DNA from: an uncultured Treponema sp.
Lineage (GTDB): Bacteria; Spirochaetota; Spirochaetia; Treponematales; Treponemataceae
NCBI GenBank assembly: GCA_946631855.1
Contig: CAMPAL010000001.1
Coordinates: 1 to 64,000 of the forward strand
Reading direction: 5' to 3'
DNA length: 64,000 nt
How positions within the stretch are numbered: position 1 is the stretch's first letter; every line of letters starts with the position of its first letter. Made by a program: the position numbers and the translations under genes. Of the stretch, positions 34,937 to 39,256 are shown in pieces. Under the pieces are notes generated by a model. The model was not told where the DNA came from and made no database searches. It was given only the letters and a program-made list of their open reading frames with translations.

Positions 34937-36226
34937 TCACAAATCTGATTTCAAACGCCAATCAAGAGTTCTGCGAAGGTAATCGACATACTCTTGACTT
35001 CGACTCATTGTTTTTCCACTATCATCAGAAAGTTTTGCAACATCTTTTCCATTTACAAGAACGACTTTTGCAACAATGTTGAGAGGATCAATAGTTTGAG
35101 GGCCAGACCAAAATGTTCCAATTCCAAAAGCAGGTTTAGCGCGTCCTTCAACATAAGAGCACAACTTTGACCAAAGCTCAAGAGAATTTATACTGTTGCT
35201 GAAAAGCAAAGTCTTTGTTTTTGGGTCAATTCCGAGTGATTTGAAATGCTCAATCCAATCATCTGCCCATTTAAATGGGTTTCCTGAATCGTTACGAACT
35301 CCACTAAACAAAGTTGCATAAGTTTTTTGCATATCTCTGCGGCAAAGTTCATCACCAATAGTGTCAGTCAACCAAATTCCGTTCCAAACTCCGTACTCTT
35401 TTATCCAAGCTTCCATTGCAATTTTGTTGCTGTATGCTGGATTGTACATTGGATTTCCCTGACCCACGCATTCAATAAATTCATGCGCACAAGTTCCAAC
35501 AGGTGTGACGTTATACTTTTTTGCCAAAAGAACGTTTGAAGTTCCAATAAAACCTGGAAGCTTTTCTTCTGCAAGACGATCTATAAGCCAGTCTTGAGCT
35601 TCAAAAGAAAGACGGCGGCGCGCTCCAAATTCTGACCAAGTTCCAAAATGAAGATTTTTGTTGCTCTTCATTTCAGCGATTTTTTCGTTAGTCTTTTCTT
35701 TGAAACCTGCAAGAAGCTCATCATAATTGTAATGATTTCTATAATAGACTTCGGCAAAAATTTCAAGAACTGGAATCTCGTAGTATTCAATGTACTCTTG
35801 AACACCAAAAAACATAATTCCATTGCCAAATTTGTTGTTAGTTGTGAATTGAAAATCTTCTAGACGTGGATGCCAAAAGCGCAAGAAGTTGATGTAATCC
35901 TGCTTAATCCAAGGACATTTTGCATTGAGATATTGCAATTCATCTTCATCAAAACGAAGTGCTGCATAAGCTCTGAGTTGATTGTTTATCTCTTTTTTGT
36001 CTTCGTCTGTATAAACTGAAGTGTGTGTTGTGTTTTCACCAACATTACGAGCTTTAAAATCCCAGGTTGTCTTTAAGTTTCCAAACTGATGATGATATGT
36101 TTGGCCCATACTTAGCTTGTATAAGTCCTGATCCATAAGAGAACGTGTCATAGGAAGATATTTTAAATTGAAATATTCTTTTACAAATTCAGGGTTATCA
36201 GTTAATTTTCCCTCTATCTCCCACAT
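34937..36226 (-). CDS. pncB: Nicotinate phosphoribosyltransferase
   Basis: LMDQDLYKLSMGQTYHHQF, WSEFGARRRLSFEAQD, GFIGTSNVLLAKKYNVTPVGTCAHEF, LFSGVRNDSGNPFKWAD, FGIGTFWSG. Confidence 0.9.
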   Translation of the reverse strand: MWEIEGKLTDNPEFVKEYFNLKYLPMTRSLMDQDLYKLSMGQTYHHQFGNLKTTWDFKARNVGENTTHTSVYTDEDKKEINNQLRAYAALRFDEDELQYLNAKCPWIKQDYINFLRFWHPRLEDFQFTTNNKFGNGIMFFGVQEYIEYYEIPVLEIFAEVYYRNHYNYDELLAGFKEKTNEKIAEMKSNKNLHFGTWSEFGARRRLSFEAQDWLIDRLAEEKLPGFIGTSNVLLAKKYNVTPVGTCAHEFIECVGQGNPMYNPAYSNKIAMEAWIKEYGVWNGIWLTDTIGDELCRRDMQKTYATLFSGVRNDSGNPFKWADDWIEHFKSLGIDPKTKTLLFSNSINSLELWSKLCSYVEGRAKPAFGIGTFWSGPQTIDPLNIVAKVVLVNGKDVAKLSDDSGKTMSRSQEYVDYLRRTLDWRLKSDL

Positions 36227-36229
36227 TTT

Positions 36230-36457
36230 TTAACCTCTTACCCAAGAATATCCATAAGCTGTTTTGCGCGAGTTATTCTTACGCTTGCGGGATTCCTTTC
36301 CCAAAGAAGTATTACAAATATTTGCTTTTGCAGTTGCAATTTTTGTTCCAAGCTTTTTGCTAATCCATTCTGCTGCTTCCGTCAATGTTTCGAAAACTTC
36401 TACTTTATTTCCATCCTTATCAAAGGCTGTAACTGTTTGTTTTTGATATCTCATCAA
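36230..36457 (-). CDS. NUMOD1-like DNA-binding small protein
   Basis: VTAFDKDGNKVEVFETLTEAAEWISKKLG...ANICNTSLGKESR...AYGYSWVR. Confidence 0.6.
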   Translation of the reverse strand: MMRYQKQTVTAFDKDGNKVEVFETLTEAAEWISKKLGTKIATAKANICNTSLGKESRKRKNNSRKTAYGYSWVRG

Positions 36458-36545
36458 AACCTCCTTGTACTTTTACAATATAGGGAAGAGAGGCAGAAAA
36501 AAAGAGCTCCCTTCTAGAGAGAACTCTTTTCACATATTTCAAAAT

Positions 36546-37808
36546 TTAACGTACTGGTTCAAAATCCTGTTCGAAATTGTCACCATTGTCTATAGAATGC
36601 TTTTTCTTTACATTACTCATATCTCCTCTTTTTCGAGGTTCAAGGTTTTCGTAATATGCGTTTATTTTTTCATCAACTTCTTTTTTGAATTTTTTAGTTT
36701 CAGGAATAATTTCATAAAATTTATTTATTGCAGAAGCCTTCCAGCCTTTATCTTCTTCCAAATCAAAAGCTGAAAGAACTTGACCGTTTGGAGTTTTACC
36801 ATAGCAATATTCAATAAATTGCAAGAAAACTGCGTCAATATCCTCAGGACTTAATTCTTTTTTTATTCTCTTCAAAAGACGAATATAAGAATACATATCC
36901 TTCAACTCTGTATCGCTCTCAGGTTGTCTTTTGAAAATCAATTGGAAGAATTCAGGCAAGCTTTGAGTATAATTTGATTCTGCACACTTAATTGGGCCGT
37001 ACCATTTTTCTCTTCCCTTTTCATCTAACTCAATTTCCCCGTTTTCATCAAGCCACGGTTTGAATTTACATCTAATTCCTTTATCAACAGAAAATGAACG
37101 GAAGTTTTTGAATTCCTGCCTTGCCAAAGCATTATTTGAAATTTTTCCTTTTGGAGTTACCAAACAAATATCCCTTAAATCACATTGCGCAGTCAAAGCT
37201 CTGATTAAGAATTTTACAAAAAGGCCTTTTACATTATTTTCCAAATCTTCCCAAGAAGAATAATGCGCAAAGGTTGAGAATTGAGTTGGAGAAGAATCAT
37301 CTTCTTCATACGGAACAAATTCCCAGTCAACCTGAATATAATCAGCTCCAACTCCTGGGAAAAGTTCGCTTGCGCAAATTAAAGAGTGAGCCTGCGAAAA
37401 GTTCATTTGATTTCCATAAACATAAAAAGTACTCTTGCCAACCTTTTTATCAACCATACCTTCCAGGAATTCAAAAAAGTTTTCTTTATCAATCTTGTCA
37501 GAAATCTGTACATCAAAATCTCCAACTTTTGGCTTTAACCTTGAATATTCTTCAAAAGGCTTTTGGAAGAAAGTACGTGAAGATCCTGAAAATAAATTAC
37601 CTGAAGTTATTTTTGAGGTATCCTTCCAAATCGGTCTTCCTGAATATTTTTCATATTCATCATTCATTTCTAGCAAAAAGTCAATAAAGCATGTTTTGAA
37701 ATCCTCAAACATATCAGGATTCATTTTTGTAGTTAAAAGCTTTGTTGCAGATTGTGCTCCTTTTGATCCTGAAACAGTTAAGTTTCCTCCTTCTATTAAT
37801 TTTCTCAT
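36546..37808 (-). CDS. Pol-beta-superfamily nucleotidyltransferase-like protein
   Basis: NLFSGSSRTFFQKPFEEYSRLKPKVGDFDVQISDK (GS...DxD pattern). Confidence 0.55.
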   Translation of the reverse strand: MRKLIEGGNLTVSGSKGAQSATKLLTTKMNPDMFEDFKTCFIDFLLEMNDEYEKYSGRPIWKDTSKITSGNLFSGSSRTFFQKPFEEYSRLKPKVGDFDVQISDKIDKENFFEFLEGMVDKKVGKSTFYVYGNQMNFSQAHSLICASELFPGVGADYIQVDWEFVPYEEDDSSPTQFSTFAHYSSWEDLENNVKGLFVKFLIRALTAQCDLRDICLVTPKGKISNNALARQEFKNFRSFSVDKGIRCKFKPWLDENGEIELDEKGREKWYGPIKCAESNYTQSLPEFFQLIFKRQPESDTELKDMYSYIRLLKRIKKELSPEDIDAVFLQFIEYCYGKTPNGQVLSAFDLEEDKGWKASAINKFYEIIPETKKFKKEVDEKINAYYENLEPRKRGDMSNVKKKHSIDNGDNFEQDFEPVR

Positions 37809-39256
37809 TTTGTTCTCCTATTATGTGCGTTCATTAAATCTTTGAATTTTGATGAAGTTGTTTTGAAACAAAATTCACCATTTTTTGATATAAAAACAAG
37901 TCCTTCAAAATCTTTACCAAAGTTTCCTTCTGTAAAGTTTGCTAAAATTTCTTCTTGCGTTTCTTTTTGAAGTTCTTTTATTACAGTCCCGTTTGCTCTT
38001 ATAGTTTTTGGATTTTCTATAAAAGATTCAGCTTCTTCTATTATATTATTCAAATCAATTGGCTCAGGGTTTAATTTTGTTGAGGTTACCGCATTAAAGC
38101 CTTCTCCCTGTAAACAAGTAATTACATCTTTTTTCAATTCTTCATTTTCAATTGGAATTCCATCCGCAAGTGCTTGAATTGTAACACATAAACCTTTTCC
38201 AATTTTACTTTTATCATATTTTATCAAAACAGCTTGAACACTTTCCCCATCTCTTGAAGCTTCCGGTAAAACATTTTCCAGCTGAACTTTTATATCTGCG
38301 CAGTTTTCTTTTTGTCTCCAATATTTTAATATATCTGCAACTTTTGAATTTATTAAAGATTTAAAGAAATCTCTAAATTTCCATCCAACATCTTCTTCTT
38401 TTCTCATTTTTATAGAAATGCCAAATTTGCTAAAATAAAACCCAAAATCATCATAACCAATAAATGAAGAGCTTCCATCTATTTTTTCTGAAATATCAAA
38501 ATCATCAGTTGTAATGAAACCCCCTTTTGATTTTATAAATTTCAAAAGTTTTATAAAATCCGAAGTGCTCATTTGTGTTTTATTATCATTATATAAATGT
38601 TCAATTGAATGTTTTCCGCTCATCGCATTTCCATCAACAGAACCTCTTTCCAAAATCTTTACATTTGTACTCCAGGTTTGTAAAAGAAAATCAACAATCT
38701 CTTTTGAATACCCAGTCAAAACCTCTACAGCTTCTGCATCGTTATTTCTAATCAACTCTCTGACTAAAGTTCCTGAAACTTCATCTTTACCCCTGGATTT
38801 TTCTATTATATATTCAAATTTTGTTTCATCCTCACTTTCAAAAGGTGTCAAGAATTTTCCAAAATCCTCTTCACGATCAGGTCCAAAAATAAAAACAGGT
38901 CTTGTGTTTTGCCCGTACATTTTTGAAACGGAATTGCCTAAATTCTTAAAAGTTTTTTCAGGAGAAGTTGGCCTGCATAAAACAATCCTAAAATCAACTC
39001 CCATTTCTTTTAATGCTTTTTCAATAATTTCTTTTCTTTGATAGGTATTAAACATATACCTTTCTTTATCTAATTTTTCCCCACTTTCAGGCATTCCAAT
39101 TACAAACTTTTTTGCACCAATTGACTGAAGTTTTTTAATCAATCTGCCGTGACCATTTGGCCCAGTAAAAGGCGCAAAATGCCCGTACAAAACCCCAACT
39201 ATTTCATCATTTTCATCTTTTGTATAATTCCAAAAACCGTTATCTAAGTAAAACAT
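37805..39256 (-). CDS. Fusion: NMNAT/cytidylyltransferase-like domain plus DNA/RNA ligase-like nucleotidyltransferase domain
   Basis: N-term GVLYGHFAPFTGPNGHGRLI and SGTLVREL; C-term ISEKIDGSSSF (KxDG), DFEGLVF (motif IV), FCFKTTSSKFK (motif V). Confidence 0.75.
   Translation of the reverse strand: MFYLDNGFWNYTKDENDEIVGVLYGHFAPFTGPNGHGRLIKKLQSIGAKKFVIGMPESGEKLDKERYMFNTYQRKEIIEKALKEMGVDFRIVLCRPTSPEKTFKNLGNSVSKMYGQNTRPVFIFGPDREEDFGKFLTPFESEDETKFEYIIEKSRGKDEVSGTLVRELIRNNDAEAVEVLTGYSKEIVDFLLQTWSTNVKILERGSVDGNAMSGKHSIEHLYNDNKTQMSTSDFIKLLKFIKSKGGFITTDDFDISEKIDGSSSFIGYDDFGFYFSKFGISIKMRKEEDVGWKFRDFFKSLINSKVADILKYWRQKENCADIKVQLENVLPEASRDGESVQAVLIKYDKSKIGKGLCVTIQALADGIPIENEELKKDVITCLQGEGFNAVTSTKLNPEPIDLNNIIEEAESFIENPKTIRANGTVIKELQKETQEEILANFTEGNFGKDFEGLVFISKNGEFCFKTTSSKFKDLMNAHNRRTK

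What the first reader, a model, noticed from the sequence alone, without database searches (positions are those of the whole stretch)
34937..39256. NAD/RNA-repair-like cluster with an NMNAT-like plus ligase-like fusion protein
Adjacent co-oriented genes: nicotinate phosphoribosyltransferase (34937-36226), Pol-beta-like nucleotidyltransferase (36546-37808) and a protein joining an NMNAT/cytidylyltransferase domain (GHFAPFTGPNGHGRLI…SGTLVREL) to a ligase-like domain (SEKIDGSSSF, DFEGLVF, FKTTSSKFK). NAPRT plus NMNAT could rebuild NAD+ against NAD-depleting immunity. The attached ligase/NTase suggests nucleic-acid repair or NAD-RNA chemistry instead.
Basis: partly seen in the sequence, partly recalled or inferred. 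Interest (0 to 1): 0.8.

Follow-up and report, generated by a model that had tools for sequence, protein, structure and literature searches.

The report
Phage RNA-repair enzyme module, NMNAT-ligase fusion
A large bacterial virus carries an enzyme that joins an NAD-synthesis-like domain to an RNA-ligase domain, next to a gap-filling-like nucleotide transferase; the same three parts recur, fused in different orders, across many large phages, which points to a little-described RNA-repair kit, parts of which may even be carried inside the virus particle, rather than to the NAD-rebuilding pathway first suggested.

Summary
On the minus strand, a 483-aa fusion (39256-37805) overlaps by 4 bp a 420-aa Pol-beta-like nucleotidyltransferase (NTase, 37808-36546). 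A nicotinate phosphoribosyltransferase (NAPRT, 36226-34937) follows. AlphaFold plus Foldseek support an NMNAT-like HIGH domain joined to an RNA-ligase fold. No Pfam family recognises the ligase.

I found the same three parts (NTase, KxDG ligase, HIGH domain) in diverse large phages: as separate genes, HIGH-ligase, ligase-HIGH, HIGH-NTase, and one NTase-ligase-HIGH triple fusion. Phages found through the NTase alone carried a ligase-like and a HIGH gene in 13/13 whole records. CCA-adding domains and metallophosphoesterases are often attached or adjacent. This supports nucleic-acid, probably tRNA, repair.

NAPRT is not part of the module: a PF04095 gene is in 5/14 module records, about the published background, never beside the module. 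In the phage with the closest NAPRT (77% identical), a separate NadD-like gene lies near it. The NAD-rebuilding reading is therefore weak.

Unexpected: many NTase and ligase proteins begin with leaders resembling T4 capsid-targeting/gp21 sites ((L/I)xE|GGN), and a published cyanophage virion proteome contains a cytidylyltransferase. Some components may be injected. The HIGH domain's substrate is unknown; all function is predicted.

The parts
37805..39256 (-). Fusion protein, 483 aa: HIGH-superfamily (NMNAT-like) domain, residues ~1-203, plus RNA-ligase-like domain, residues ~214-483
   Evidence: ORF; PF01467; AF2 model; Foldseek
39149..39184 (-). HIGH motif GHFAPFTGPNGH (residues 25-36); final H invariant in family
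38753..38776 (-). SGTLVREL motif of HIGH domain (residues 161-168), S and R conserved
38474..38488 (-). Ligase motif I EKIDG (residues 257-261), predicted adenylated lysine K258
37892..37909 (-). Ligase motif IV FEGLVF (residues 450-455)
37841..37867 (-). Ligase motif V FKTTSSKFK (residues 464-472)
36546..37808 (-). Pol-beta-superfamily nucleotidyltransferase, 420 aa, phrog_19290; 4-bp overlap with the fusion gene
37791..37799 (-). LIE before GGN (residues 4-6 of NTase): candidate prohead-protease site MRKLIE|GGN
37512..37523 (-). GDFD, catalytic Asp pair D97/D99 of NTase (third Asp D161)
36507..36521 (-). Terminator-like stem-loop between NTase and NAPRT (boundary, not itself a module part)
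   Evidence: consensus scan only
34937..36226 (-). NAPRT (PncB-type), neighbour; judged NOT part of the module

Best explanation
The fusion gene and the overlapping NTase gene form one version of a phage RNA-repair module made of three different nucleotidyltransferases: a Pol-beta-like NTase, an Rnl2-like KxDG RNA ligase of a family not in Pfam, and a HIGH-superfamily adenylyltransferase. Likely sequence of events: a host anticodon nuclease breaks a tRNA; end-processing (in some phages by an adjacent calcineurin-like phosphoesterase) yields 5'-P and 3'-OH; the NTase restores lost 3' nucleotides; the ligase adenylates itself on K258 and seals. Shown computationally: folds, motifs, conserved linkage, repeated fusion. 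Inferred: that RNA, and tRNA in particular, is the substrate, and the order of steps. For the HIGH domain I commit, at about 30%, to activity on 5'-phosphate/5'-App RNA ends: the NMNAT reaction (ATP + 5'-phosphoribosyl compound giving App-ribosyl compound + PPi) is chemically the same as making, or in reverse undoing, the ligase's 5'-adenylated RNA intermediate, which would explain why the two domains are so often tied together. NAPRT is an unrelated neighbour.
For: Fusion order is swapped between relatives: HIGH-ligase in window and P0002, ligase-HIGH in P0003-P0010 and L003. NTase is fused to HIGH (L022), to a CCA-adding/polyA-polymerase head (L007, PF01743 2.6e-16), and to both ligase and HIGH in one 1027-aa protein (L048; three separate PHROGs on it). 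Whole records found through the NTase: HIGH in 13/13; this ligase family adjacent to the NTase in 10/13; the other 3 carry a different KxDG protein fused to HIGH (phrog_27149). All 15 Campylobacter and 6 Vibrio phage records with the NTase are matched by 15 + 6 records with the KxDG-HIGH fusion. Fold matches: ligase half to Naegleria RNA ligase 6.5e-8, T4 Rnl2, TbREL1; first DNA ligase only at rank 38. NTase to Pol lambda/beta. Catalytic residues conserved in all three families. Metallophosphoesterase adjacent in many loci, CCA enzyme in 7/14 records. The combination ligase + NTase + phosphoesterase is the known pattern of phage RNA repair (PMC7824862).
Against: No activity is known for any member. 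The ligase is not recognised by any Pfam family (0/13 members) and only weakly by PDB profiles (best RNA ligase E 0.08); identification rests on motifs and a predicted structure. The NTase fold E-value is only 1.9e-3 and its best matches are DNA polymerases, so DNA repair is not excluded. No anticodon nuclease, kinase or tRNA evidence ties the window module to tRNA. The HIGH substrate is undetermined: its best fold matches are true NMNATs. The window contig is a 66-kb fragment.
Confidence: 0.62

Rival explanations
1. NAD+ rebuilding: the HIGH domain is a working NMN/NaMN adenylyltransferase which, with NAPRT, restores NAD+ against NADase defences; the ligase is a passenger or a second counter-defence activity on the same polypeptide.
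For: Best fold matches of the HIGH half are NMNATs; the NAPRT gene is a true PncB and lies 320 bp after the NTase on the same strand; no other HIGH gene was seen in the window.
Against: NAPRTase family in only 5/14 module-bearing records, never adjacent, similar to the published 22-33% of medium/jumbo phages with NadV (PMC9503650). Other adenylyltransferase genes sit near the phosphoribosyltransferase in G001 (NadD-like) and X1 (second HIGH hit 1.6 kb away), separate from the module. HIGH domain far below NMNAT cut-offs. PncB gives NaMN, so NadE would be needed too.
Confidence: 0.15
2. DNA repair: Pol-X-like gap filling plus ligase acting on DNA nicks or breaks, with HIGH providing NAD+ or another cofactor.
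For: NTase model is closest to Pol lambda and Pol beta; Pol X + ligase is a classical end-joining pair (general knowledge).
Against: Ligase half matches RNA ligases far better than DNA ligases; a CCA-adding domain is fused to the NTase in three loci, pointing to tRNA; no DNA-ligase family match to the ligase half was seen.
Confidence: 0.13
3. NAD-RNA or RNA-cap chemistry: the HIGH domain makes or removes 5'-NAD-type or adenylated caps, and the ligase/NTase rework the ends of phage or host transcripts.
For: Same chemistry links NMNAT products and App-RNA; the HIGH domain is tied to RNA-end-type enzymes in many architectures.
Against: No direct evidence; no Nudix or decapping partner was noticed in the loci inspected.
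Confidence: 0.1

Closest known systems
Phage RNA-repair systems with RlaP (RNA-ligase-associated Pol-beta NTase) plus Rnl1/Rnl2 ligase (PMC7824862; Burroughs & Aravind 2016, from memory)
   Same: A Pol-beta-superfamily NTase next to an ATP-grasp-type RNA ligase, with phosphoesterases and CCA-adding enzymes in large phages
   Different: NTase does not match Pfam RlaP PF10127 and ligase does not match PF09414; 4 of 15 searched genomes/records carry RlaP as a separate gene elsewhere; a HIGH domain is a constant third partner here
NARP2 / phage NAD+ salvage (NadV/NAMPT + NadM/NadR NMNAT; PMC9503650)
   Same: Phosphoribosyltransferase and an NMNAT-like domain in one phage neighbourhood
   Different: NAPRT not NAMPT; not conserved beside the HIGH domain; HIGH domain fused to a ligase, not to Nudix or a kinase
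T4 Rnl2 / Naegleria NgrRnl RNA ligases
   Same: Predicted fold, KxDG, EGxV and motif V
   Different: No significant sequence-profile match; fused to a HIGH domain
Cyanophage 'cytitidyltransferase' (phrog_395/phrog_3041) beside DUF6267 (PF19782)
   Same: HIGH domain of the same family coupled to a protein with KxDG and EGxV motifs; DUF6267 relatives in 266 phage records
   Different: No Pol-beta NTase neighbour found in two inspected loci; DUF6267 relation to ligases is by motif only
T4 Alt and internal proteins IPI-III
   Same: Short N-terminal leader ending in a gp21-type site; Alt has a 7-residue propeptide (PMC9026906)
   Different: Different enzymes; packaging not shown for this module

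Membership tests
HIGH superfamily nucleotidyltransferase | HIGH-type (H/T)xGH motif and SxTxxR motif in a Rossmann-like fold | tested here: met
   PF01467 above cut-off (24 vs 21 bits); motifs conserved; Foldseek
NMN/NaMN adenylyltransferase (NMNAT/NadD/NadM) | Match to NMNAT equivalog/subfamily models | tested here: not met
   Best NF002243 12.5 bits vs cut-off 127
NMN/NaMN adenylyltransferase (NMNAT/NadD/NadM) | NMN or NaMN adenylylation | not testable with these tools
   needs an enzyme assay
RNA ligase (Rnl2-like, covalent nucleotidyltransferase) | Motif I KxDG, motif IV EGxV, motif V K and matching fold | tested here: met
   invariant K, D, G, E, G, K; Foldseek 6.5e-8 to NgrRnl
RNA ligase (Rnl2-like, covalent nucleotidyltransferase) | Sequence match to Pfam RNA-ligase families | tested here: not met
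   0 of 13 members
RlaP | Pfam PF10127 match | tested here: not met
   no match in G000, which holds the window; none in the Pfam scan
Pol-beta superfamily NTase | GS...DxD...D signature and Pol-beta palm fold | tested here: met
   (prob 1.00, but E 1.9e-3)
NARP2 | NAMPT enzyme | tested here: not met
   gene is NAPRT, TIGR01514 above cut-off
NARP2 | Conserved pairing of phosphoribosyltransferase with NMNAT | tested here: not met
   PF04095 in 5/14 records, never adjacent to this module
T4-type capsid-targeted protein | N-terminal leader with (L/I)xE site and a gp21 protease in the phage | tested here: inconclusive
   leader ends in E in 25/27 leader-bearing NTases; PF03420 in 10/13 phage records but not found in G000; cleavage and packaging not shown

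The most novel reading that the evidence does not exclude
Some phages pre-load RNA-repair enzymes into the virion. The NTase and ligase carry T4-type capsid-targeting leaders that the prohead protease removes (mature N-terminus GGN for the NTase), and the enzymes are injected with the DNA so that tRNAs cut by host defences can be mended before any phage gene is expressed. The HIGH domain is a new activity on 5'-phosphate/adenylated RNA ends.
Probability: 0.3. Interest if true: 0.87.

Novelty: new variant of a known kind. Interest (0 to 1): 0.67.

Why it matters
It gives a testable function to several protein families annotated as unknown, or mis-suggestively as cytidyltransferase, in large phages (phrog_19290, phrog_27149, phrog_12709, and by motif DUF6267/phrog_455 in 266 phage records, mostly cyanophages). 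It would show that phage RNA repair is broader than RlaP/Rnl/RtcB, and that a NAD-type adenylyltransferase fold is a regular partner of RNA ligation. If parts are packaged in the virion, repair could begin at the moment of infection. It also warns against reading every phage NMNAT-like domain as NAD+ counter-defence.

Tried and rejected
NAD+ rebuilding as the module's function (weakened). RlaP identity of the NTase. Single-sequence searches of the fusion in phages, PDB and viral contigs found nothing; only profiles and the NTase opened the family. The genome-contig scan gave no relatives. Profile comparison did not join the Vibrio/Campylobacter KxDG domain to the window's ligase family (hhalign prob 4%), so I treat it as a second ligase-like family in the same role. 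Among NTase loci, L018, L019 and L025 showed no recognised HIGH or ligase neighbour in the stretch held; I inspected their ORFs and saw no replacement, so the linkage is not universal. Literature: no description of the three-part module found in the held library; the 2016 Burroughs & Aravind survey is not held, so prior mention cannot be excluded. The Campylobacter phage IBB_35 virion protein list is in a supplement I could not read. The CTS-like regular expression was written after seeing the leaders, so its p-values (5.8e-6 ligase, 5.7e-3 NTase) are descriptive only.
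Full report
WHAT IS THERE. The window is the first 64,000 of a 66,168-bp contig in a metagenome-assembled genome; its gene content is phage-like. On the minus strand lie, in transcription order, a 483-aa fusion (39256-37805), a 420-aa NTase (37808-36546, 4-bp overlap), a 75-codon ORF with a weak NUMOD1 match (36457-36230), a 429-aa NAPRT (36226-34937), a 91-aa ORF and an SPFH/Band-7 protein (34583-33678, PF01145 1.2e-26). A terminator-like stem-loop lies just after the NTase stop (36521-36507), though the scan found no excess over shuffles.

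DOMAINS. Pfam sees only PF01467 in residues 23-167 of the fusion. An AlphaFold2 model built on 25 sequences has mean pLDDT 88. Foldseek against the PDB matches one half to RNA ligases (Naegleria NgrRnl 6.5e-8, T4 Rnl2 1.1e-5, TbREL1 2.4e-5) and the other to NMNATs (NadM 8e-6, Methanobacterium NMNAT 1.1e-5); the first DNA ligase is at rank 38. Motifs: GHFAPFTGPNGH at 25, GPDR at 125, SGTLVREL at 161; EKIDG at 257, FEGLVF at 450, FKTTSSKFK at 464. They are conserved across relatives. The NTase model (pLDDT 85, pTM 0.84) resembles Pol lambda and Pol beta (prob 1.00, E 1.9e-3); G75, S76, D97, D99, Q159 and D161 are invariant in 25 sequences.

RELATIVES AND LINKAGE. Protein search gave 12 relatives. 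The alignment shows a swap of domain order: the window and P0002 are HIGH-ligase, P0003 to P0010 are ligase-HIGH. Scanning viral contigs with an NTase alignment gave 40 loci; profile searches of their ORFs found, around the NTase, the HIGH and ligase families in many arrangements: separate nearby genes (L005, L020, L028, L031, L037, L044), HIGH-ligase fusions (L004, L007, L014-L016), HIGH-NTase fusions (L021, L022), an NTase-CCA fusion (L004, L007, L014) and a single NTase-ligase-HIGH protein of 1027 aa (L048), which three different PHROG families confirm independently. A calcineurin-like phosphoesterase is adjacent in many of these loci. Some of the listed loci are the same contig or near-identical contigs, so I rely on the whole-record tally below.

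WHOLE-RECORD TALLY. In 14 large records, HIGH is found in 14, NTase in 13, this ligase family in 11. In all 10 records with both, ligase and NTase are close neighbours; HIGH lies within about 3 kb of the NTase in 9 of 13. The three records without this ligase family (Vibrio phage Va1, Campylobacter phage CPt10, G007) carry a different KxDG-bearing protein fused to HIGH, phrog_27149. The 13 NTase records were chosen through the NTase, so HIGH and ligase presence is independent evidence; they are not a random sample of phages. The cultured examples agree: 15 Campylobacter and 6 Vibrio phage records hold the NTase and 15 + 6 hold the KxDG-HIGH fusion; Xanthomonas phage X1 has NTase, ligase and HIGH genes in one stretch, the first two annotated hypothetical.

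WHY NOT NAD+ SALVAGE. The gene is a true NAPRT. PF04095 occurs in 5/14 records, never next to the module, not clearly above the 22-33% reported for NadV in medium and jumbo phages (PMC9503650). The window's NAPRT is 77% identical to one in the phage of L003; that phage has the ligase-HIGH fusion about 20 kb away and a separate 183-aa NadD-like gene (TIGR00482 102 bits, cut-off 112) about 3 kb after NAPRT. X1 likewise has a second HIGH hit 1.6 kb from its phosphoribosyltransferase, away from the module. So where NAD+ salvage is evident, other genes appear to provide the adenylyltransferase. The window contig is incomplete, so a NadD elsewhere in this phage cannot be seen.

MECHANISM. Known phage RNA repair combines an RNA ligase, a Pol-beta NTase that restores lost nucleotides, CCA-adding enzymes and phosphatases, calcineurin-like ones in some phages (PMC7824862). 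The module fits this pattern with different proteins: the NTase is not RlaP and the ligase is not in Pfam. I therefore read it as RNA repair, tRNA being the likely target because of the CCA fusions. The HIGH domain is the open point. Its active-site motifs are kept, so it is probably an enzyme. Making NAD+ and making 5'-adenylated RNA are the same chemistry on a 5'-phosphoribosyl group; a role in forming, or undoing by pyrophosphorolysis, the ligase's App-RNA intermediate would explain the constant pairing. This is inference, about 30%.

POSSIBLE PACKAGING. NTases either begin MGGN or have a short leader: in 27 leader-bearing cases, residue -1 is E in 25 and residue -3 is L or I in 26, while residue -2 varies (one exception is an alternative start and one reads LLC). 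T4 gp21 sites conform to a logo that includes LIE, Alt has a 7-residue N-terminal propeptide, and 10 residues of IPIII suffice for targeting (PMC9026906). Many ligases carry similar leaders (MKTFKQFLTE|S, MTTFKEYLVE|S, MKPFSKFIKE|T; 9/20 against 32/482 other ORFs, post hoc pattern). A gp21-family protease is present in 10 of 13 phage records. Cyanophage HIGH proteins begin MKSFFQFLSE|A and MKSFTSFFTE|A, and a cytidylyltransferase was found in the S-CREM2 virion by mass spectrometry, whose authors note frequent detection in cyanophage virions but also possible carry-over (PMC10665884); I did not have that protein's sequence to confirm it is the same family. The window NTase has MRKLIE|GGN; the window fusion has no clear leader. 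The shared EGGN could also be plain homology. I rate packaging of at least some members at about 0.3-0.4.

WIDER REACH. In cyanophages the HIGH gene overlaps a gene for a DUF6267 relative (P-HM1 140504-141709 and 141700-142266; S-CAM9 129629-130831 and 130828-131952). A DUF6267 member in L027, lying between HIGH and NTase genes, has FKTDG and GEGFVVFG...FKIV. By motif this could be another ligase-like partner; it was not modelled.

LIMITS. No biochemical data. Ligase identification depends on motifs and a predicted structure. Prior description of the module cannot be excluded because key papers were not held.

Noticed in passing
window 51-1142 (+): phrog_1211, annotated 2-aminooxy adenylosuccinate synthetase (PurZ-like), E 3e-28: possible 2-aminoadenine (Z) DNA phage.
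   Followed up: no
window 8658-9545 (+): QueD-like domain (phrog_2389, 1.9e-15) in the C-terminal part of a 295-aa protein.
   Followed up: no
window 33678-34583 (-): SPFH/Band-7 protein (PF01145 1.2e-26, phrog_200) downstream of NAPRT; SPFH proteins are recalled from memory as proposed scaffolds in RNA repair.
   Followed up: no
window 3692-3766 (+): ARAGORN reports an undefined tRNA with a 2-base anticodon; no Rfam match.
   Followed up: no
window 49253-50551 (-): Transposase (phrog_506, 4e-93) in the phage contig.
   Followed up: no
L070 38-1576: Phage protein with a CoaE-like P-loop start (by eye) and a C-terminal CoaD-like domain (TIGR01510 59.6 bits, below cut-off 103).
   Followed up: partly
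L027 8659-9960; cyanophages P-HM1, S-CAM9: DUF6267 proteins carry ligase-like KxDG and EGxV motifs, and the gene overlaps the cytidyltransferase gene in cyanophages.
   Followed up: partly
P0011, P0012: Two proteins (398 and 584 aa) have the HIGH domain followed by a different C-terminal half that did not align with the ligase.
   Followed up: no
L043 11065-11733: A GNAT acetyltransferase gene with a capsid-targeting-like leader (MTSFKEYLQE) lies between NTase and ligase genes that have the same kind of leader.
   Followed up: partly
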